Assembly: GCA_022711595.1 (NCBI GenBank)
Contig: JAKLET010000004.1
Location: forward strand, 1-64,000
Direction of reading: 5' to 3'
Length of the DNA stretch: 64,000 nucleotides
Source: Deltaproteobacteria bacterium
Lineage (GTDB): Bacteria; Desulfobacterota; Syntrophorhabdia; Syntrophorhabdales; Syntrophorhabdaceae
Below, piece after piece: positions 3,184-59,094 of the stretch. The notes below the pieces were generated by a model. The model was not told the origin of the DNA. It did no database searches and was given only the letters and a program-made list of their open reading frames with translations. The stretch's first letter is position 1, and each line of letters begins with the position of its first letter. A program made the position numbers and the translations under genes.

Positions 3184-3235
3184 AACTTTCAAACTCTCAA
3201 ACATTCAAACTGTTCTTTCCATCACCCATCACCTG
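3184..3235. repeat. Right-type tandem words: 8-mer AAACNNTC and 7-mer CATCACC
   Basis: Four consecutive 8-mers (AAACTTTC, AAACTCTC, AAACATTC, AAACTGTT) are followed by CATCACC CATCACC TG. They belong to the gene-end word arrays seen throughout the window, here in the reverse-complement ('right') orientation. The rest of 3120-3279 holds no gene that I can support. Confidence 0.75.
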
Positions 3236-3279: not shown

Positions 3280-3465
3280 ATGAAAGACATCGTAGATTTT
3301 TGCGATCTCATGTGCAAGTACGCGAAGATGCCGAAGGAAACAGGTGTGGACGGATCAGGGAGCTGCAGGACCTTTGTCGCCATCCGATGCGAATTGAAAA
3401 AGACCCTCGTACACAAGAACATGCCCTGCAGGCAGAAGGTCCTCAGATCGTCGAAAAAGAAATAG
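3280..3465 (+). CDS. Possible small cysteine-containing protein
   Basis: A 61-residue frame starting MKDIVDFCDLMCKYAKMP and ending in a basic tail (RSSKKK). It contains five Cys (8, 12, 29, 37, 50), has natural-looking composition, and lies on the plus strand in an otherwise empty 566-base gap. No convincing ribosome binding site is visible. Support comes from context: a left-type word array begins ten bases after its stop, as is the case after bona fide plus-strand genes elsewhere in the window. Function unknown. Confidence 0.5.
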   Translation: MKDIVDFCDLMCKYAKMPKETGVDGSGSCRTFVAIRCELKKTLVHKNMPCRQKVLRSSKKK

Positions 3466-3474
3466 GGATAAGGC

Positions 3475-3552
3475 GGGTTATGGGTGATAGGTCATGGGCT
3501 ATGGGAAAGGCTGGAAAAGTTTCTTTGGTTTATTAGTTTACCTGGTTGTTCA
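3475..3552. repeat. Left-type tandem words: 7-mer GGTNATR then 9-mer GGTTTNTTN
   Basis: GGTTATG GGTGATA GGTCATG GGCTATG forms a run of four heptamers, and from 3518 nonamers AGTTTCTTT GGTTTATTA GTTTACCTG follow. The remaining stretch to the glycosidase stop (3553-3685) contains a small palindrome AGAAAA-7-TTTTCT at 3630-3648 and a run of eight G at 3662-3669 running into GGGGCGCCCC, which may terminate the minus-strand gene. Confidence 0.75.
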
Positions 3553-7177: not shown

Positions 7178-7284
7178 AAGTTTAGATTACCCGCTTGTTT
7201 TCTGATAACAAAAAGAAATGCTAACACAGGCCCGTGGATGAGTCAATGGAACAGGTGTTTTTACCTATAAGACCGTGTTTATAT

Positions 7285-7379
7285 GGTTTGTTCGGTTTGT
7301 ATGGTTTATCTGGCTGTAATCAACCAAAGAAACAAGAGAAACTAAACAAACCAAAAAACAAGAAAAACCAAAGCGTAAA
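7285..7379. repeat. Inverted arms of 9-mer words (GGTTTNTNN / AAACCNNAN)
   Basis: The left arm is GGTTTGTTC GGTTTGTAT GGTTTATCT GGCTGTAAT (7285-7320). The right arm (7321-7373) is built from AAACNAANN-type words. The right arm lies just downstream of the stop of the minus-strand HD gene (7406), in the same orientation relative to that gene as arrays elsewhere in the window. Confidence 0.78.
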
Positions 7380-11292: not shown

Positions 11293-12089
11293 AGGGAGAG
11301 TTCTCTGGACCTCTTGCATGCCTTTTCTATGGCATCGATGACACTGCCCTTGAAGGCCCGGCCTTCAAGCACGGCAAGACCGGCGATGGTGGTCCCGCCC
11401 GGCGAGGTTATCATCTCGCGCATCACCGTGGGATGGACCTGTTCTTCTTCGAGCATGGCAAGAGTTCCCTTGATGACCTGAACGCAGATGGCCCGCGCCT
11501 TGTCTCTGGGCATGCCGATCTTGACCCCGGCGTCTATCATGGCTTCAAGGAAAAGGAGAAAAAAGGCGGGGCTGCTTGCACCCAGCGATGTCACGGCATC
11601 CATCAGATCTTCCCCGACCTCGACAACGAGGCCCATGGAAGAGAACATGTCCACAACAGCCTTCATTTCCTCCCGGGTGACATCTGTGCCTGCAGCTACG
11701 CCGATGACGCCCTCTCCAACCTTAATGGCGATATTGGGCATCACCCTCACGATCTTGACGGGTTTTCCCAGCAGCGAGAGGATGTTCGAAATGGTGACGC
11801 CGGCCATGATGGAGACGATGACCTGTGAGTTGCTTATCGAGGCTGCAATGTCCTGGAGGACCTTTTTCGCGTCCTGGGGTTTCACGGCAATGATGAGGCA
11901 GCCGGAGCCTTTTACGAGGGCGGCGGCCTTCTTCGTATTTTTTACCCCGTAAGTTTTCTCTATGTAAGAGGCCCGTTCCTTTTTTGACTCCGAGAAAACA
12001 ACGCTGTCTTTTTTGAAACCGTTCTTCAAAAGGGCCTTGAGAATGGACTCGCCCATGTTCCCCGCGCCTATTATTCCCACCTGTCCCAT
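11289..12089 (-). CDS. proC: Pyrroline-5-carboxylate reductase
   Basis: A 266-residue NAD(P)H-dependent enzyme catalysing the last step of proline synthesis. It begins with the Rossmann motif [17 protein letters not shown] and ends with the ProC signature region [22 protein letters not shown] lies just before the ATG. It is the first gene of the overlapping proC-pcm-rpoS-murJ-HD operon and is divergent from a secreted protein gene. Confidence 0.95.
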
Positions 12090-12247
12090 TGAACGCCTCC
12101 TTGTACCTTATAACAGAACGGAGTGTTATTTTAAAGATAAAACTGCGTCAAACCGGCCTGCCGTGGTCCGCAGGGATTGTCTTTAGCAACGGTACCACAG
12201 GGCAATTATCCTTGACAAATCCGCGGGCTTGCAGCATCCTGATTTTT

Positions 12248-12784
12248 ATGGTTGACAGAATGAACGTTACGCACCTCTGGCGGTCGCTGGTCTTTTCGGC
12301 GTTAATTGTATCCTGTGGCAGTACCGCGTTCTGCGATGACTGCAACCCTCTGTTCAGCTGTCAAACCAACAGGGCCGGCAAGTTCATCATGATCTGTGCG
12401 ACAGAACTGCAGGCGGGAAGCAAGTGGTCGAATGTTCAATACCGATACGGTATGGAGGGGAAAGCGCCCGAGTTTGTTTTCCCGGCCAGACCATCGAAGG
12501 GAGTGCCTCCGATGTTCTTTTCGCATATCGCAAGAGGCGATGATTACCGCATTTCAATCAGATTTGAGAACAAAGGCTACATGTACCGGATCTTCTCCAC
12601 CACGGGTGACGACGGTGCGGGTGTCCGCGTCACTGACAGGCAGGGCAGGGTCGTATCGGTTTCGCGATGCATCGAGAGACCGTACATGTTTCCGGACTAT
12701 CTTCGGAGTGCGCTCGCATGTGATCTAAAAAATCCCCATGGCGGGGCTGCGTGCAAAAATGATCCCTACGTGGAGGCGCCATAA
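12248..12784 (+). CDS. Secreted cysteine-containing protein of unknown function
   Basis: I do not recognise this 178-residue protein. The N-terminus (LWRSLVFSALIVSCGSTAFC) is a signal peptide or lipoprotein signal; the mature part carries Cys in CDDCNPLFSC, MICATEL, SRCIERP, LACDL and AACKND, which suggests disulfides. ATG at 12248 or 12260 both give the signal peptide; neither has a strong ribosome binding site. Longer in-frame starts would read into the proC promoter region. It stands alone, divergent from proC. Confidence 0.65.
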   Translation: MVDRMNVTHLWRSLVFSALIVSCGSTAFCDDCNPLFSCQTNRAGKFIMICATELQAGSKWSNVQYRYGMEGKAPEFVFPARPSKGVPPMFFSHIARGDDYRISIRFENKGYMYRIFSTTGDDGAGVRVTDRQGRVVSVSRCIERPYMFPDYLRSALACDLKNPHGGAACKNDPYVEAP

Positions 12785-12849: not shown

Positions 12850-13069
12850 ACAATAGCCCGCATAAGCGGGCGAGAGGGGGATGCTCCGCGGACTTTACGT
12901 TCGTGGAGGGGGCGACGCGAGCCCCCTGCACAAAGACGGGGCCGGGGGAGATTTAGGACTCCGTCACAATAGCCCGCATAAGCGGGCGAGAGGGGGAGGC
13001 TCCGCGGACTTTACGTTCGTGGAGGGGGCGACGCGAGCCCCCTGTATAAAGACGGGGCCGGGGGAGATT
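12850..13069. repeat. Two 104-bp direct repeats with internal palindromes
   Basis: Copy 1 spans 12850-12953 and copy 2 spans 12966-13069, separated by 12 bases. They are the same length and differ at about three positions (for example GGATGC versus GGAGGC, and TGCACAAAG versus TGTATAAAG). Each starts with ACAATAGCCCGCATAAGCGG, which holds the palindrome GCCCGC-ATAA-GCGGGC, and has a second hairpin GGGGGC-GACGC-GAGCCCCC. A relative of the first palindrome recurs at 59019-59036. The 413-base gap 12785-13197 contains these repeats, a 9-mer array and no gene that I can support. Confidence 0.93.
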
Positions 13070-13151
13070 CCAGCCTTTCCCGGCTATCTGCTTTACAAGG
13101 AGAACCCCCGGAAACGGACTATTCTGAACAGCAGTGAAATTTTCTACCCGA

Positions 13152-13196
13152 CAAACCAGATAAACCATATGAACCAAAGAAACCGGGTAAACTGTT
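13152..13196. repeat. Right-type 9-mer words next to the smr stop
   Basis: AAACCAGAT AAACCATAT GAACCAAAG AAACCGGGT AAACTGTTT is a run of five degenerate nonamers that ends two bases before the stop codon of the minus-strand Smr gene. Confidence 0.78.
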
Positions 13197-13197
13197 T

Positions 13198-13872
13198 TCA
13201 GCCGATGATGTGAAGGCGTTTCTTTTCCGGTTTGGCCCGAAGCAGGATGTAGGTGGCCCCGGGGCCTCCGTCGGACATGGTGGCATTGGAAAAGGCGGTG
13301 ACCCACCTGCGGTGCATTGCGCGCACGATCCACGTCTTGAGGTAGTCTTTTATAGTGGGGTCCCTTTTTGAGCGCAGACCCCGGCCATGGATAACCTTGA
13401 CGCACCTGAGGCCTTTTTTGACGGCATCGGAGAGGAAATACTCGAAGCTCTCCCTTGCTCCTTCTATGGAGAGCCCGTGGAGGTCCATGACCTTCTGAAC
13501 GGAGAATTCACCCCTGCGGAGCTTTTCCATGATAAGGGGGTTGATGCCCTCAACGTAGCCTTCCATGTATTCCGGGAGGTTGGTCACATTGATGACGCTG
13601 TGATCGGAGAGCGCCTCGAGCAGGAGCTTTTCGGCATCATCGTTCGGACGTCGGGGTGCGGCGCGGCCCCCTTTTTTTTCCGGCATCCTTTTTTCACGCC
13701 GGCTGATCACCCGAACGCCTTCCATGGCCTGGTTCAACAGGCTTTCGTCATCCACGGCGCCGCTTTGCTTCTCCTCTTTGCGCACACCTTCCTTTTTCAG
13801 TTCGATACTGTGTTCTTCAAGGAACCTGGACAGATCGGAGAAGGGCCTGTTGATGTGTTCTTTTTCATCCAT
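13198..13872 (-). CDS. Smr/MutS2 C-terminal-domain protein
   Basis: A 224-residue cytoplasmic protein. The C-terminal half is an Smr domain, with MDLHGLSIEGA near residue 127 and KVIHGRGLRSK near 157, the two motifs that define the fold and its proposed DNA/RNA nicking activity. The N-terminal 110 residues are charged and low-complexity. A GGPGATYILL segment near the end matches the usual Smr finish. It overlaps nothing but follows a small membrane protein gene by 13 bases, so they are likely cotranscribed. Confidence 0.88.
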   Translation of the reverse strand: MDEKEHINRPFSDLSRFLEEHSIELKKEGVRKEEKQSGAVDDESLLNQAMEGVRVISRREKRMPEKKGGRAAPRRPNDDAEKLLLEALSDHSVINVTNLPEYMEGYVEGINPLIMEKLRRGEFSVQKVMDLHGLSIEGARESFEYFLSDAVKKGLRCVKVIHGRGLRSKRDPTIKDYLKTWIVRAMHRRWVTAFSNATMSDGGPGATYILLRAKPEKKRLHIIG

Positions 13873-15962: not shown

Positions 15963-16027
15963 CGTGCGGTGAATGCACAGAAACAACCGTGTTTTTCCCT
16001 GCCGCAGGACGGACAAGGTGTGAATAC

Positions 16028-16789
16028 ATGAAGCTAATAGAAGAAAATCAGTTGATACTTATCATCTGCCGAGGCAGAAAGTACTTAAAAAGGATAACCC
16101 CCGATCAATCATTTCACGGTAAAGGGGGTATGCTCCGCTACTGTGATCTCATCGGAAAGCCCTACGGAATAAGGATCGGGGAATACGATATTTTCGAACC
16201 CACGATGGAAGACATCGTGATGTACGCCCTTAAAAGGGAAACACAGATCGTTTTTCCCAAGGAGAGCTTCTATATAGCCTTCCACCTGAGCCTGAAAAAG
16301 GGGTCAAAAGTCCTTGAGGTGGGCACTGGCAGCGCTGCAACGACATATATTTTTTCTCATGCCGTAGGGCCGGAGGGCCTTGTTGTTTCCTACGAACAGG
16401 AGGAAAGACATTTCCGGAACGCCAAACGCAACATTGAGCGCTTTGGCGAATGGGACAACGTGGAGCTTCACAACGAAGAATTTACCGGATGTGCCGTGGA
16501 TGATTTTGATGCTGCCTTTATCGATGTCCGCGAGCCGTGGACGGTCCTTGAAAAGGTAAGGGGCCATCTGAAGGGGAGCGCGCCCATCGGCATGATCGTG
16601 CCCACCGCGAACCAGATATCGGAGGTCCTGAAAGAACTTGAAACAGGTTACGGAGACACCGAAGTGCTGGAGATACTCATAAGGAAATACAAGACCGTCG
16701 CCGAGCGCGTGCGCCCCAACGACCGCATGATCGCCCACACGGGCTATCTCGTCTTCACAAGGAAGCTGGAAACAGTTTCAACCGCTTGA
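16028..16789 (+). CDS. trmI: tRNA (adenine-N1)-methyltransferase, TrmI family
   Basis: A 253-residue enzyme, expected to make m1A58 in the T-loop of tRNA. The order is typical: an N-terminal small beta domain, HGKGGMLRYCDLIGKPYG, then a SAM-binding fold (VLEVGTGSAATTYIF) and DAAFIDVREPW. ATG at 16028 has AAGGTG upstream. Its last codons (TCA ACC GCT TGA) are read from the first words of the following 9-mer array, so the repeat supplies the stop codon. Confidence 0.88.
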   Translation: MKLIEENQLILIICRGRKYLKRITPDQSFHGKGGMLRYCDLIGKPYGIRIGEYDIFEPTMEDIVMYALKRETQIVFPKESFYIAFHLSLKKGSKVLEVGTGSAATTYIFSHAVGPEGLVVSYEQEERHFRNAKRNIERFGEWDNVELHNEEFTGCAVDDFDAAFIDVREPWTVLEKVRGHLKGSAPIGMIVPTANQISEVLKELETGYGDTEVLEILIRKYKTVAERVRPNDRMIAHTGYLVFTRKLETVSTA

Positions 16790-16917
16790 ACAGCTTGAGC
16801 CGCTTAAGCGTCATAAACAAAAAAATACTCATCTTTTGAAGCATTAGAGAACAGTTTTCAGAGAATATGTTTTGAACGCTCAAGCTGTTCAAACGGCTCA
16901 AACTGTTCAAGCTGTCT
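16774..16917. repeat. Inverted arms of 9-mer words (TTGAACNGC / GCTCAAGNN) between convergent genes
   Basis: The left arm is TTCAACCGC TTGAACAGC TTGAGCCGC TTAAGCGTC, beginning inside the 3' end of trmI. The right arm (about 16873-16917) is GCTCAAGCT GTTCAAACG GCTCAAACT GTTCAAGCT and ends at the stop codon of the minus-strand LOG gene (16918). The arms can pair in several registers, with an AT-rich loop of about 60 bases. Confidence 0.88.
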
Positions 16918-17568
16918 CTAAAGGATCACGAATTTCTTGACGTAGTCCGCGATCTCCTGCGGGTCGTCCATGATCTTGAAGATGTCCAGGTCTTCCTTGA
17001 GGATCTTGCCGTCAGCCAGCATCTTTTCCTTCATCCATTCGATGAGCCCCTTCCAGTATGAGGAATCGACGAGAATGACCGGGAAAGGCCTCATCTTCCT
17101 TGTCTGGATGAGCGTGACGGCCTCAAAGAACTCATCGAGGGTGCCGAAACCCCCGGGCATGACGATATAGGCCATGGCGTACTTGAGGAACATGACCTTG
17201 CGTACGAAGAAATAGTGGTAGCTCAGTTTCATGTTTGAGTACGTATTCGGTTTTTGTTCAAAGGGAAGCTCGATGTTTATGCCCACGGATTTTACCCCGG
17301 CTTCCTTTGCGCCCCTGTTCGCGGCCTCCATGACGCCGCCCCCGCCGCCGGTTATGATGTTAAAGCCGTACTTGCCAAGCAGTTTGGCCAGCGTGTAGGT
17401 CCTCTGGTAAAGCTCGTCATCCTTCTTGCAGCGGGCGCTTCCGAAAACGGTGATGGCGGGGCTTATATCGTTCAGGTTCTCGAATCCCTCGATGAATTCC
17501 GCCATGATGTGGAATAACCTCCATGATTCCTTGAGGTTCATGTCGTCTATGATGTATTGTCTCTCCAT
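16918..17568 (-). CDS. LOG-family (TIGR00730) nucleoside-5'-monophosphate phosphoribohydrolase-like protein
   Basis: A 216-residue Rossmann-fold protein. GGGGGVMEAANRGAKEAG and MPGGFGTLDEFFEAVTLIQ are the two hallmark motifs of the LOG family, often misnamed lysine decarboxylases. Members release bases from nucleoside monophosphates, including cytokinin-type ones. It is slightly longer than the shortest LOG proteins. Divergent from the DUF72 gene. Confidence 0.9.
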   Translation of the reverse strand: MERQYIIDDMNLKESWRLFHIMAEFIEGFENLNDISPAITVFGSARCKKDDELYQRTYTLAKLLGKYGFNIITGGGGGVMEAANRGAKEAGVKSVGINIELPFEQKPNTYSNMKLSYHYFFVRKVMFLKYAMAYIVMPGGFGTLDEFFEAVTLIQTRKMRPFPVILVDSSYWKGLIEWMKEKMLADGKILKEDLDIFKIMDDPQEIADYVKKFVIL

Positions 17569-18475: not shown

Positions 18476-19834
18476 ATGAATAATGAGATATTCAGGGAAT
18501 ATGACATCAGGGGAAACGTCGAGAGGGACCTCACTGACGATGTCGTCCGCAATATCGGCAGGGCCTTCGCGTCATACATGCATGAAAGGGGCAGAAATAA
18601 AGCCTCTCTGGCGCGTGATTGCCGGCTCTCTTCCGAACATTACCGCGATCTCCTCATGGAGGCAATGATGGAAAGCGGTCTTGCGGTCACTGACATCGGC
18701 CTTGTGCCAACGCCTCTTTTCTACTACTCCCTTTTCAATCTCGATGTCGAAGGCGGGATCATGGTGACGGGAAGCCATAACCCTCCCACGATGAACGGTT
18801 TCAAGGTCGCCGTCGGCAGATCGACGATCTGGGGAGAACAGATACAGGACATCAGAAAGATCATCGAGGCAAAGAGGTTCGTAAGCGGCACGGGTTCGCA
18901 GCTTGAATACGGCCGTATTGTTGACGATTATTACGCCTACCTGCGTTCCAACATTAAAATCGGAAAGCGTTTCAAGGTTGTCATTGACGCCGGCAACGGT
19001 ACCGGCGGGGTCATTGCAGCACCAATAATGAGAGAGTTCGGTCAGGATGTGACGGAGCTTTTTTGTGATATGGACGGTCATTTCCCCAACCATTTTCCCG
19101 ACCCCACCGTCGAAAAGAACCTTGCCGCTCTTAGAAAGACCGTTGTCGAAGAGAAGGCCGATGTGGGCATCGGTTACGACGGTGACGCCGACCGGATAGG
19201 CGTTGTCGATGAAAAAGGCGGCATAATCTGGGGTGATTACCTCATGCTGATCTTTTCCCGGAGTGTTGCGAAGAAGAACAAGGGGGGCACGTTCGTTTCC
19301 GAGGTGAAGTGTTCCAGGAACCTCTTTGCCGATATCGAGAAAAACGGGGGCGTGCCCGTTATGTGGAAGGCGGGCCATTCCCTTATAAAACAGAAGATGA
19401 AAGAGACGGGCGCCCTGATGGGCGGAGAGATGAGCGGTCATATCTTTTTCGCCGACAGATTCTTCGGATACGATGATGCTGTTTATGCAACACTGAGGTT
19501 CCTGGAGATAATGGAAGAAGAGGGCAGGCCCGTATCCGAGTTTCTCAGCGATCTGCCCAGGACATGGTCCACGCCGGAGATCCGCGTGGATTGCGGCGAT
19601 GACGTGAAATTTGATGTTGTGCGAGAGCTCACGGAGCACTATCGCGGAAAGTACCCGGTCATCGATATCGACGGTGTGAGGGCCATCATGGACGACGGCT
19701 GGGGGCTGGTGAGACCCTCGAATACTCAGCCCATGCTGGTTTTGCGTTTCGAAGCCGACACGCCCGAGGCCCTGGAACGTATCCAGTCGATGGTCATGGA
19801 AGACCTGGAAAGGATAATGAAGAAGTACAGGTGA
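18476..19834 (+). CDS. manB: Phosphomannomutase/phosphoglucomutase (AlgC/ManB type)
   Basis: A 452-residue cytoplasmic enzyme interconverting hexose-1- and hexose-6-phosphates for polysaccharide and LPS precursors. Motifs in order: FREYDIRGN at the start, the phosphoserine loop VTGSHNPP near residue 98, the metal loop GYDGDADRIG near 240, the sugar-binding GEMSGHIFF near 322 and RPSNTQPMLVLRFEA near the C-terminus. ATG at 18476 has GAGGG upstream. The stop TGA is formed by the first heptamer of the repeat array that follows. Confidence 0.92.
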   Translation: MNNEIFREYDIRGNVERDLTDDVVRNIGRAFASYMHERGRNKASLARDCRLSSEHYRDLLMEAMMESGLAVTDIGLVPTPLFYYSLFNLDVEGGIMVTGSHNPPTMNGFKVAVGRSTIWGEQIQDIRKIIEAKRFVSGTGSQLEYGRIVDDYYAYLRSNIKIGKRFKVVIDAGNGTGGVIAAPIMREFGQDVTELFCDMDGHFPNHFPDPTVEKNLAALRKTVVEEKADVGIGYDGDADRIGVVDEKGGIIWGDYLMLIFSRSVAKKNKGGTFVSEVKCSRNLFADIEKNGGVPVMWKAGHSLIKQKMKETGALMGGEMSGHIFFADRFFGYDDAVYATLRFLEIMEEEGRPVSEFLSDLPRTWSTPEIRVDCGDDVKFDVVRELTEHYRGKYPVIDIDGVRAIMDDGWGLVRPSNTQPMLVLRFEADTPEALERIQSMVMEDLERIMKKYR

Positions 19835-19949
19835 TGGGTTATAGGTGATAGGTCATAGGTCATAGGTGATAGGTAGGAGAGTTTTTTCCATAACCCATAA
19901 CCCATAACCTATGACCTGTCTTTTATCTTTTCCATCACCCATAACCTGT
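19830..19949. repeat. Inverted arms of 7-mer words (GGTNATR / YATNACC)
   Basis: Seven heptamers in a row (GGTGATG GGTTATA GGTGATA GGTCATA GGTCATA GGTGATA GGTAGGA) run from 19830 to 19878 and include the phosphomannomutase stop codon. After an 11-base T-rich loop the complementary words CATAACC CATAACC CATAACC TATGACC follow (19889-19919), with a third short block CATCACC CATAACC at 19933-19949. This is the clearest example of the family in the window. Confidence 0.93.
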
Positions 19950-28221: not shown

Positions 28222-28246
28222 CCCCCGTCAAACATTAAAGCGGATG
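28203..28246. repeat. Perfect 20-bp inverted repeat at the end of ychF
   Basis: The left arm (28203-28222) covers the last codons and the stop of ychF. After a CCCC loop the right arm (28227-28246) is an exact reverse complement. As RNA it would form a 20-bp hairpin without a following U tract. Downstream 9-mer words follow immediately. Confidence 0.95.
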
Positions 28247-28476
28247 AACCGCTTGAACCGCGATAAATCTATTTATTCCGGCTTGGGGCCGGGATTCAGG
28301 AAAAACTATTTGGCCGCATGTCCGGTCAGGTCTCACGCTCTCTGCTTAAGCTGTGGGCGGCTTACCCTGCATCGGTTCACTCTTCGCCAACGGCAAAGAA
28401 ATGCTTCCATCCTTTTTCTGGTGATGTTTTGTTTTTACGTTCAAACTGTTCAAGCTGCTCAAGCGGTTCAAGCTCT
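28242..28476. repeat. Inverted 9-mer words between ychF and the zinc-ribbon gene
   Basis: Left words GATGAACCG CTTGAACCG begin at 28243. The right arm GTTCAAACT GTTCAAGCT GCTCAAGCG GTTCAAGCT (28439-28475) ends three bases before the stop of the minus-strand gene. The 190 bases between hold no frame that I can support. Confidence 0.82.
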
Positions 28477-30996: not shown

Positions 30997-31094
30997 GGTT
31001 TCTTCGGTTTTTATAGTTTTTCCAGTTTCTTTGGTTAATAAAGCTGAATTTGCTGCAATAATGGGAGAAACCAGACAAACCAAATAAACTTTTT
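30997..31094. repeat. Inverted arms of 9-mer words next to the pstB stop
   Basis: The left arm GGTTTCTTC GGTTTTTAT AGTTTTTCC AGTTTCTTT GGTTAATAA is a perfect run of five nonamers (30997-31041). The right arm AAACCAGAC AAACCAAAT AAACTTTTT (about 31068-31094) reaches the stop codon of the minus-strand pstB. Confidence 0.88.
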
Positions 31095-45220: not shown

Positions 45221-45225
45221 AAACG

Positions 45226-45353
45226 GGTCATGGGTGATAGGTAATAGGTCATTGGGAAAAGCAAGGCAACAACATTCGTCCTCTTTTACCTATCACCTTT
45301 TTTTGCCCCATCACCCATGACCTGTCTTTTCATCACCCATCACCCATCACCTG
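45226..45353. repeat. Inverted arms of 7-mer words between convergent genes
   Basis: GGTCATG GGTGATA GGTAATA GGTCATT begins five bases after the reductase stop. The complementary arm (TACCTATCACC near 45288, then CATCACC CATGACC and CATCACC CATCACC CATCACC to 45352) ends seven bases before the minus-strand MFS stop. Confidence 0.92.
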
Positions 45354-49727: not shown

Positions 49728-49731
49728 GACG

Positions 49732-49801
49732 GGTAATGGGCAATGGGTCATAGGTTATAGTGAATCAAGTTTTTCCCATCACCCATCACCTATCACCCAT
49801 C
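49732..49801. repeat. Inverted arms of 7-mer words between convergent genes
   Basis: GGTAATG GGCAATG GGTCATA GGTTATA starts four bases after the GlcD-like stop. After GTGAATCAAGTTTTT the right arm CCATCACC CATCACC TATCACC CATC ends four bases before the stop of the minus-strand flavin-domain gene. Confidence 0.92.
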
Positions 49802-56637: not shown

Positions 56638-56664
56638 GTCATCCCGGCGCAGGCCGGGGTCCAG
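56638..56664. repeat. Dispersed palindromic repeat (REP-like, copy 2)
   Basis: GTCATCCCGGCGCAGGCCGG continues with GGTCCAG. It is the same unit as at 2617 with two changes. Confidence 0.85.
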
Positions 56665-56799: not shown

Positions 56800-57000
56800 A
56801 TGCTTGCAATTAAAAAAGAATATATCGTCACAGCCAATAATAAGAAAAAAGCCGTACTCATTGATATTGATACTTTCAGGATCATGGAAGAGATAATCGA
56901 GAATTATGGTCTTGGGAAGTTCATGGAAGAAGTTGAAAATGAAAAAAATCTTTCTCTCAGCAATGCAAAAAAACATTATGCAGCTTTGAAAAAAGGTTGA
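56800..57000 (+). CDS. Type II antitoxin, RelB/Phd-like
   Basis: A 66-residue protein (VTANNKKKAVLIDIDTFRIM, then a C-terminal helix ending NAKKHYAALKKG) with the usual N-terminal strand/helix dimerisation part and a C-terminal toxin-binding helix. The next codon after its TGA starts the broken RelE-like frame. Local sequence is markedly AT-rich compared with the genes on either side, suggesting acquisition. Confidence 0.75.
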   Translation: MLAIKKEYIVTANNKKKAVLIDIDTFRIMEEIIENYGLGKFMEEVENEKNLSLSNAKKHYAALKKG

Positions 57001-57273
57001 GTGTTGGTCTGTCTCTTCAAGAAGACATTCTTAAAGGACCTTGCCGAATTACCAAATACCCATCGTAAGAAAATTGAAAAGCTGGTTTTTGAAGATATTC
57101 CGAATTTGAAGGATATTCCGGACAATATCAATATTAGGAAAATGTAGGGATACGATAGCTATTACAGAATCAAAATAGGAAGCTTAAGAGTCGGATGTGA
57201 ATTATTGAAAGGGAACAAAATCGTATTTTACCGGGTCAAACACAGGAAAGACATATACAGGGTGTTCCCGTAA
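57001..57273 (+). pseudogene. RelE/ParE-family toxin with an in-frame stop
   Basis: Reading from GTG at 57001 gives CLFKKTFLKDLAELPNTHRK and DIPDNINIRKM, then TAG at 57145-57147, and continues in the same frame as [20 protein letters not shown] and [14 protein letters not shown] to TAA at 57271. Both halves are ordinary RelE sequence, with Arg and Tyr of the active end (KHRKDIY). A single base change (for instance AAG to TAG) explains the break. The antitoxin in front is intact. Confidence 0.88.
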
Positions 57274-57301
57274 AAAAGTTATTTGATGCTTGGAGATAGA
57301 T

Positions 57302-58615: not shown

Positions 58616-58622
58616 CAAGACG

Positions 58623-59094
58623 GGTTATAGGCGATGGGTGATAGGTCATAGGAGAGATAGTTTCAGGTTCCAAGTTCAAGGTTCCACGGAAAAAACTATT
58701 CCACATTCCAGACTCCACGCTTTGGGGAAGAAATTTTTTCTTGGAACTTTGACGGCCTGTTGATAAAGTCTGTTGACCCGTTTTCATTGGTGTATTTGGT
58801 TATTTCCGTCATACCGGCGAAGGCCGGTATCCAGGAAAAACAGGGGTTTAGCAACCATCTTGACACCAGCCTTCACCTTAGGTAACGAGCTATGTGGAGT
58901 TTATCAACAGACTGTTGAAAGTTTGAGTGTTCATAAAACGGTTTATCGTTTGTGGAAGAAATCCCTCCCGTTCTCCCTTTTCAAATTGGAGGGGTACCAC
59001 TCCCTCCTTTCGTAACTGTAGCCCGCATAAACGGGCAAGAATAGTTTTTGCATCATATTTGCAAATTATGTAATATATGTGACAGGATACAAGA
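58623..59094. repeat. Repeat-rich gap: 7-mer words, REP-like copy 3 and a second palindrome
   Basis: GGTTATA GGCGATG GGTGATA GGTCATA (58623-58650) starts seven bases after the pmbA stop. Other words follow (GTTCCAA GTTCAAG GTTCCAC near 58668). The REP-like unit with ATACCGGC-GAAG-GCCGGTAT lies at 58808-58834, and TAGCCCGCATAAACGGGC at 59019-59036 matches the start of the 104-bp repeats at 12.9 kb. No gene is supported in the 479 bases before MntA. Confidence 0.8.

What the first reader, a model, noticed from the sequence alone, without database searches (positions are those of the whole stretch)
16774..16917. Word-built inverted arms at gene ends: general rule across the window
Degenerate tandem words fill gaps in the window, in several unrelated alphabets (7-mer GGTNATR, 9-mer TTGAACNGC, 9-mer GGTTTNTNN, 8-mer AGTTTGAN, possibly 7-mer GCGTGAN). 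In each, the 'left' form follows plus-strand stops and the 'right' (reverse-complement) form precedes minus-strand stops, so arms face each other. Arms begin 0-10 bases from stop codons (trmI, phosphomannomutase, reductase, GlcD-like, pmbA, acetyltransferase). Six of eight convergent junctions carry them: 3119/3686, 12784/13198, 16789/16918, 28221/28479, 45220/45360, 49727/49806. The other two have ordinary hairpins. Unrelated words with one geometry suggest selection for a foldable, register-slipping hairpin, not spread of one element.
Basis: seen in the sequence. Interest (0 to 1): 0.82.

Follow-up and report, generated by a model that had tools for sequence, protein, structure and literature searches.

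The report
Word-built hairpins at gene ends
In this syntrophic bacterium the ends of neighbouring genes are marked by hairpins whose two arms are built from short repeated 'words'; related species keep the hairpin at the same place but swap the words, which suggests that the pairing of the arms, more than the exact sequence, is preserved there.

Summary
The host is Syntrophorhabdus-like (Desulfobacterota). In an 860-kb sample, six degenerate vocabularies with a 7-9 base period occur between genes (e.g. GGTNATR: 73 arrays against 0.3 in shuffles). They lie in 56 of 82 convergent gaps, 61 of 318 tandem and 17 of 90 divergent gaps. Arms sit a median 6 nt from stop codons. Same-family arms face each other ('><' 75, '<>' 1). 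Where two families each form a pair in one gap, the pairs are nested (8 of 8).

Among congeners, both arms of a junction mostly change vocabulary together (clear at three of five convergent junctions tested). In homologous GGTNATR arms the fixed letters differ by 0-3.5%, R by 29%, N by 47%. N and R do not covary between arms.

Most likely these are bidirectional 3'-end stem-loops that end or protect transcripts, with stems drawn from dispersed word families. Termination is inferred, not shown. The closest published case is the GGGANTN heptamers of Xanthomonas (PMC4692102). New here: coexisting vocabularies, nesting, word swapping at fixed sites. What spreads or reads the words is unknown.

The parts
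16771..16809 (+). left arm of the reported hairpin, 9-mer GYTTSARCN words (AACAGTTTCAACCGCTTGAACAGCTTGAGCCGCTTAAGC); overlaps the TGA stop of trmI at 16787-16789
16878..16915 (-). right arm of the reported hairpin (reverse complement of GYTTSARCN words), ends 2 nt before the minus-strand stop at 16918
15989..16789 (+). trmI-like tRNA methyltransferase gene, upstream gene of the junction
   Evidence: PF08704
16918..17568 (-). LOG / lysine-decarboxylase-like gene, convergent partner
   Evidence: PF03641
3183..3213 (-). right-form AGTTTGAN array
3219..3234 (-). right-form GGTNATR array
3475..3505 (+). left-form GGTNATR array, 9 nt after the stop of the 61-aa ORF 3280-3465
7277..7313 (+). GGTTTNTNN left arm in a tandem (--) gap
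7322..7358 (-). GGTTTNTNN right arm, facing 7277-7313
13146..13192 (-). GGTTTNTNN right arm next to the minus-strand stop at 13198; no clear left partner
19829..19874 (+). GGTNATR left arm; the stop codon of the phosphomannomutase gene (19832-19834) lies inside the first word
19888..19917 (-). GGTNATR right arm
19932..19947 (-). second GGTNATR right arm
28245..28261 (+). short GYTTSARCN left arm
28439..28473 (-). GYTTSARCN right arm
30997..31036 (+). GGTTTNTNN left arm in a tandem (--) gap
31066..31089 (-). GGTTTNTNN right arm next to the minus-strand stop at 31094
45225..45255 (+). GGTNATR left arm
45286..45352 (-). three successive GGTNATR right arms (45286-45298, 45307-45323, 45331-45352)
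49731..49760 (+). GGTNATR left arm
49775..49800 (-). GGTNATR right arm
58622..58652 (+). GGTNATR left arm 7 nt after a plus-strand stop
58659..58686 (+). GTTCMAR left array, with a short right-form partner at 58740-58752

Best explanation
These are 3'-end stem-loops, usable on both strands, that most likely end or protect transcripts: bidirectional intrinsic-terminator-like or REP-like elements. The stem is built from degenerate words of one vocabulary in sense orientation directly after a stop codon, answered by the reverse complement further on. A GGTNATR arm has the form AAAGAC-(GGTNATR)x2-4-GGAAAAA, so the base of the stem reads AAAGAC...GTCTTT and offers a U-rich tail on either strand. 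Shown: position, polarity, nesting, fold, and that at most of the junctions compared both arms change vocabulary together between species. Shown: in homologous GGTNATR arms the fixed letters are conserved and the N and R letters are free, so the core letters of the word are what is kept. Inferred: that the hairpin acts in RNA as a terminator or 3'-end block. Inferred: that vocabularies disperse among gene ends and replace one another over evolution by copying or recombination through an unidentified mechanism.
For: Enrichment at 3' ends and in convergent gaps. Strict facing order, 75 to 1. Nested order in all 8 two-family cases. RNA fold z: convergent paired gaps median -5.9 (83% below -3) versus -1.2 for convergent gaps without arrays and -0.2 for tandem gaps without. 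A-rich outer flank, giving a U-rich tail in the opposite transcript: A 54% for GGTNATR arms versus 27% background. Co-switching of both arms between species at orthologous junctions. Fixed letters 0-3.5% different, R 29%, N 47%, other gap positions 15%, with the second species unfiltered. Words at chance in coding sequence (GGTNATRGG 46 observed, 40 expected) against 166 observed, 6.5 expected between genes.
Against: N and R letters do not covary between the arms of one hairpin, and R pairs slightly less than across loci (GGTNATR R position p(low) = 0.002, GGTTTNTNN first N p(low) = 0.016), so pairing is not optimised. The U-rich tail is short and weak, and nearly absent in the SCGTRAR family (outer A 29%). 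Loops are long (median spacer 45 nt) for a classical terminator. 17 of 90 divergent gaps also hold arrays; I did not show that hidden 3' ends lie there. At two of the five convergent junctions tested the arm test is weak: dnaJ/htpG p = 0.10 (most species share GGTNATR) and met/putP p = 0.034 with low scores. No transcript data were available.
Confidence: 0.6

Rival explanations
1. The words are binding sites (DNA or RNA) for sequence-specific factors in trans, one per vocabulary; facing pairs make polar blocks or palindromic platforms at gene ends, and hairpin folding is a by-product.
For: Fixed letters, and the place of N, are the same in tens to hundreds of loci and in distant families, which pairing alone does not require; N is free and does not covary between arms; units of one array are barely more alike at N than units of different arrays (0.342 versus 0.272 over all pairs in GGTNATR arrays).
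Against: Both arms are present in tandem gaps as well, and both switch vocabulary together between species, which points to pairing. The S letter of GYTTSARCN matches between arms of one locus (0.70 versus 0.46). No candidate factor identified. Several coexisting vocabularies would need several factors.
Confidence: 0.2
2. Selfish, mostly functionless repeat families (REP/MITE-like) that insert where harm is least, just after stop codons.
For: Each vocabulary is dispersed; AGTTTGAN elements share conserved inner sequence between loci; order of nesting is consistent (GGTNATR outside, GYTTSARCN next, others inside), as insertion into loops would give; patchy distribution among congeners.
Against: Little or no excess of arrays with the same string of variable letters (16 versus 7 expected for GGTNATR, 1 versus 0.5 for GGTTTNTNN). 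Word number and fixed letters conserved over species divergence. Number of Y1 (REP-associated type) transposase genes does not follow the words: G002 has none and many words, G009 has six and few.
Confidence: 0.15
3. G-quadruplex or other non-B DNA elements, as proposed for the Xanthomonas and Nostoc heptamers, with four units giving four G tracts.
For: GGTNATR arrays most often have four words (31 of 72), as in Xanthomonas (PMC4692102).
Against: GYTTSARCN has no G tracts and yet also stops at four words (26 of 81, none longer). In GGTNATR the R letter is A in 40%, which breaks a GGG tract.
Confidence: 0.05

Closest known systems
Degenerate heptamer arrays (GGGANTN)n of Xanthomonas and GGGGA(C/T)T of Nostoc (Rehm et al. 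2015, PMC4692102)
   Same: Intergenic, period 7, fixed letters with free letters at fixed places, most often four units, facing pairs (70-75 per genome), closer to the 3' end of the upstream gene, rare between divergent genes, length and sequence variation between related species
   Different: There one G-rich word per genome was studied for quadruplexes; here at least six vocabularies of period 7, 8 and 9 coexist, most not G-tract words, pairs nest, convergent enrichment is stronger, and vocabularies replace each other at orthologous sites with both arms switching together
Paired DNA uptake sequences (USS/DUS) serving as terminators in Pasteurellaceae and Neisseria (Kingsford et al. 2007, PMC1852404)
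   Same: A genome-wide short word in inverted pairs, concentrated between convergent genes, taken as Rho-independent terminators
   Different: One non-tandem word per genome in USS/DUS; here words are tandem, degenerate, several per genome, and not enriched in coding sequence
REP/BIME elements with RAYT transposases (from general knowledge)
   Same: Inverted-repeat hairpins after stop codons, dispersed by the hundred
   Different: No shared REP-type unit was seen, arms are tandem words, and Y1 transposase copy number does not follow them
TAACTGA direct repeats of Beggiatoaceae (PMC4679880)
   Same: Abundant intergenic 7-mer arrays
   Different: Mostly single-orientation arrays just upstream of start codons; one word; not paired

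Membership tests
Rho-independent (intrinsic) terminator | Stable stem-loop after the gene end, more stable than shuffled sequence | tested here: met
   convergent paired gaps median z -5.9; z -4.5 at the finding
Rho-independent (intrinsic) terminator | U-rich tract directly after the stem | tested here: inconclusive
   GTCTTT-type tail in GGTNATR and partly in GYTTSARCN arms; weak or absent in others
Rho-independent (intrinsic) terminator | RNA 3' ends map there | not testable with these tools
   no transcriptome held
Degenerate heptamer arrays of the Xanthomonas/Nostoc kind | Intergenic tandem 7-mers with fixed and free letters, about four units, facing pairs near 3' ends | tested here: met
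   for GGTNATR; the 8- and 9-mer families fall outside the strict definition
Degenerate heptamer arrays of the Xanthomonas/Nostoc kind | G tracts able to form quadruplexes | tested here: not met
   GYTTSARCN lacks G tracts; R is A in 40% of GGTNATR words
DNA uptake sequence (USS/DUS) | Single word strongly over-represented genome-wide, coding sequence included | tested here: not met
   coding sequence at chance for all five words tested
DNA uptake sequence (USS/DUS) | Word increases uptake of DNA by competent cells | not testable with these tools
   needs experiment
REP/BIME with RAYT | Associated Y1 (REP-associated) transposase tracks the repeats | tested here: not met
   no correspondence across 12 congeners (G002 none, G009 six)
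Known Rfam RNA family | Match at gathering score | tested here: not met
   only one tRNA in the window

The most novel reading that the evidence does not exclude
Several coexisting, degenerate nucleotide vocabularies are each read in trans by their own cognate factor at gene ends. Vocabularies come and go by lineage while the facing geometry at each junction is inherited, so the genome carries a replaceable 'punctuation language' for gene ends.
Probability: 0.18. Interest if true: 0.88.

Novelty: new variant of a known kind. Interest (0 to 1): 0.64.

Why it matters
Tandem-word inverted arms at gene ends were known as single-word curiosities (Xanthomonas, Nostoc) without a function. Here they mark about two thirds of convergent junctions in a genome sample. 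They come in at least six vocabularies, nest inside one another, and are swapped at orthologous sites with both arms mostly changing together. That makes an old open question testable: are such repeats slippage debris, quadruplexes, selfish DNA or terminators? The comparative pattern (arms keep matching, fixed letters frozen, N free) separates these. It also leaves a puzzle, since neither pairing nor copying alone explains a free letter at the same place in hundreds of loci.

Tried and rejected
Simple slippage as the whole source of the arrays: adjacent units are hardly more alike at free letters than units of other arrays, though homogeneous runs exist (e.g. G007 dnaJ right arm) and GGTNATR shows a small within-array excess (p = 0.011).

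Arms as inverted copies of each other at each locus: no excess own-locus complementarity in GGTNATR, GGTTTNTNN, SCGTRAR or AGTTTGAN; an excess only in GYTTSARCN, explained by sub-vocabularies shared by both arms.

REP/RAYT dispersal: Y1 transposase numbers do not follow. Uptake sequences: no coding enrichment. G-quadruplex as a general rule: GYTTSARCN has no G tracts. Phage origin: only 40 stretches in 2.9 million viral contigs hold four GGTNATR words. Rfam: no family.

A first per-letter comparison of homologous arms used a pattern that forced the fixed letters; it was discarded and redone without that bias. Reversed-word patterns on the contigs were a poor control, because they match real arrays out of phase, and were replaced by shuffled gaps. 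Searches for these word strings in the paper library found nothing relevant.

Full report
Setting. The window is G000:C34:1-64000 of a 3.55-Mb genome. Its nearest named relatives are Syntrophorhabdus and Syntrophorhabdales metagenome-assembled genomes, Desulfobacterota.

Is it there? Yes. At 16771-16809 and 16878-16915 two facing arrays of a 9-mer (GYTTSARCN) flank the trmI/LOG convergent junction, and the RNA folds with z = -4.5. In the sample, period 7-9 arrays found by autocorrelation lie in 38% of convergent, 11% of tandem and 9% of divergent gaps, with 0-1 in shuffles. With consensus words the numbers of arrays in gaps against dinucleotide shuffles are GGTNATR 73/0.3, GYTTSARCN 120/2.3, GGTTTNTNN 58/0.7, SCGTRAR 33/0.3, GTTCMAR 11/3, AGTTTGAN 28/1. 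At least one array is present in 56/82 convergent, 61/318 tandem and 17/90 divergent gaps (convergent versus tandem p = 8e-17). The words are at chance in coding sequence and 11 to about 70 times over-represented between genes.

Anatomy. The outermost arm lies a median of 6 nt from a stop codon, and 67% lie within 15 nt; only 3% lie within 15 nt of a start codon. Same-family arms are ordered '><' 75 times and '<>' once. Arms are about 31 nt long with a median spacer of 45 nt. A GGTNATR arm reads AAAGAC-(GGTNATR)n-GGAAAAA, with n usually 2-4, and GYTTSARCN never exceeds four words. Where two families each form a pair in one gap they are always nested (8), never crossing or side by side, with GGTNATR outside, GYTTSARCN next and the others inside. 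Convergent gaps with paired arms fold far better than shuffles (median z -5.9) and better than convergent gaps without arrays (-1.2). Sometimes the array supplies the stop codon itself (trmI, 16787-16789; phosphomannomutase, 19832-19834).

What is conserved? At the trmI/LOG junction the congeners carry GYTTSARCN (own, G001, G002), GGTNATR (G003), an 8-mer related to RGCACACG (G005, G006, G010), a different REP-like repeat (G004) or no gap at all (G011). At mreB/uvrD the series is GGTNATR (own), GYTTSARCN (G001, G002, G005, G006), RGCACACG-like (G007, G011), a GGYNATA variant (G008) and TCGTNAG (G009). At greA it is GYTTSARCN (own, G001, G002, G006), GTTTCAG (G010), GTTCAAG (G005), CGTAAAC (G008) and TCGTNAG (G009). 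At dnaJ/htpG and met/putP, and at the tandem junction after phosphomannomutase, the picture is alike. The left arm of a species matches its own right arm far better than the right arm of another species at the same junction (mreB/uvrD 17.0 versus 8.4, none of 5000 permutations as high; greA 18.6 versus 11.4, p = 0.003; trmI/LOG 14.3 versus 9.1, p = 0.005; met/putP p = 0.034; dnaJ/htpG p = 0.10, where most species share GGTNATR). This is compensatory change at the level of whole words. It supports pairing, or insertion and replacement as a unit.

Inside a vocabulary. In homologous GGTNATR arms of related species, aligned without filtering the second species, the fixed letters differ in 0-3.5%, R in 29%, N in 47%, and other aligned positions of the same gaps in 15%. 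The N figure is inflated by shifts of register. N and R do not match between the two arms of one hairpin more than between loci, and R even slightly less (p(low) = 0.002). Only the Y and S letters of GYTTSARCN match (S 0.70 versus 0.46), because both arms of a locus use the same sub-vocabulary. Adjacent units are scarcely more alike at the free letters than units from different arrays, and arrays at different loci rarely share strings of free letters beyond chance. So arms are not inverted copies of each other, arrays are not simply slippage ladders, and loci are not recent copies of one master; yet the core letters of the word are held.

Distribution. GGTNATR triplets are common through most of the genus (G003, G008 and G009 have few) and in scattered distant families of the phylum: 46 of 297 genomes have at least one, and G126 and G288 have hundreds. 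GYTTSARCN is confined mainly to own, G001, G002, G005 and G006, with few in G010 and none or almost none in G003, G004, G007, G008, G009 and G011. Distant genomes show further vocabularies of the same style. Y1 transposase number does not follow the words.

Interpretation. The evidence best fits 3'-end stem-loops usable on both strands, built from dispersed word families and kept at the junction while the vocabulary is replaced over evolution. Steps shown: location, polarity, folding potential, co-switching of arms, constraint on core letters. Steps inferred: action as terminator or transcript-end block, and the copying mechanism. Pairing alone does not explain why the free letter has the same place everywhere; either common descent with a bar on other changes, or a reader in trans, must be added. 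I put the trans-reader idea at about 0.2.

Prior art. Rehm et al. 2015 (PMC4692102) described (GGGANTN)n arrays in Xanthomonas with four-unit preference, 70-75 facing pairs, a position near the 3' end of the upstream gene and rarity between divergent genes, and left the function open. Kingsford et al. 2007 (PMC1852404) presented paired uptake sequences as terminators concentrated in tail-to-tail regions. The present case is a variant of this kind; the multiplicity of vocabularies, their nesting and their replacement at orthologous sites were not found in the library searched, which does not hold most subscription journals.

Limits. Gene calls are approximate (for example the ORF 12089-12784 and some divergent gaps). 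The orthologous comparison covers five convergent junctions and a few tandem ones. Vocabulary labels outside the six modelled families are read by eye. No transcript data were available.

Noticed in passing
   Followed up: partly
window 12850-13069: A 116-bp unit in two tandem copies (97% alike), ACAATAGCCCGCATAAGCGGGCGAGAGGGGG...; a related piece lies near 59017 and a similar one in the trmI/LOG gap of G019 (L057), so it is probably another dispersed repeat family.
   Followed up: no
window 58800-58840 and 56640-56660; G004 trmI/LOG gap (L040): REP-like GTCATNCCGGCGAAGGCCGG...ATCCAG palindromes, a different dispersed repeat that occupies some of the same gene-end positions.
   Followed up: no
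L174, L175, L177 (G126 and G054, distant family f14): Many further vocabularies (e.g. GGTCTATCT, GGAGATT, GCCCTAT, GTCTACC, GACNCAATG) packed in gaps up to several kb long; this lineage may be a richer case than the present genome.
   Followed up: partly
L184 (G010) and L191 (G005), downstream of mreB: The UvrD-side hairpin found in other congeners is absent; both carry the same foreign sequence right after the mreB stop, possibly an insertion element.
   Followed up: no
L228 (G003) and L229 (G005), met/putP gap; G003 gaps at 12702 and 14179 of the fetched stretch: A family AATNACC whose left arm has the opposite polarity (C-rich form directly after a plus-strand stop); an exception to the polarity seen in the own genome.
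   Followed up: no
C1:79988, C1:136033, C12:124991, C12:146923, C23:86496 of G000: AGTTTGAN elements share conserved inner sequence (GAAGCG...TTGAAACGGTTC) and a 45-49 nt spacer, so this family looks like a true unit-type repeat, unlike the others.
   Followed up: partly
window 56800-57275 (+): A Phd/RelE-like toxin-antitoxin pair in which the second reading frame is interrupted by a stop codon; read by eye only.
   Followed up: no
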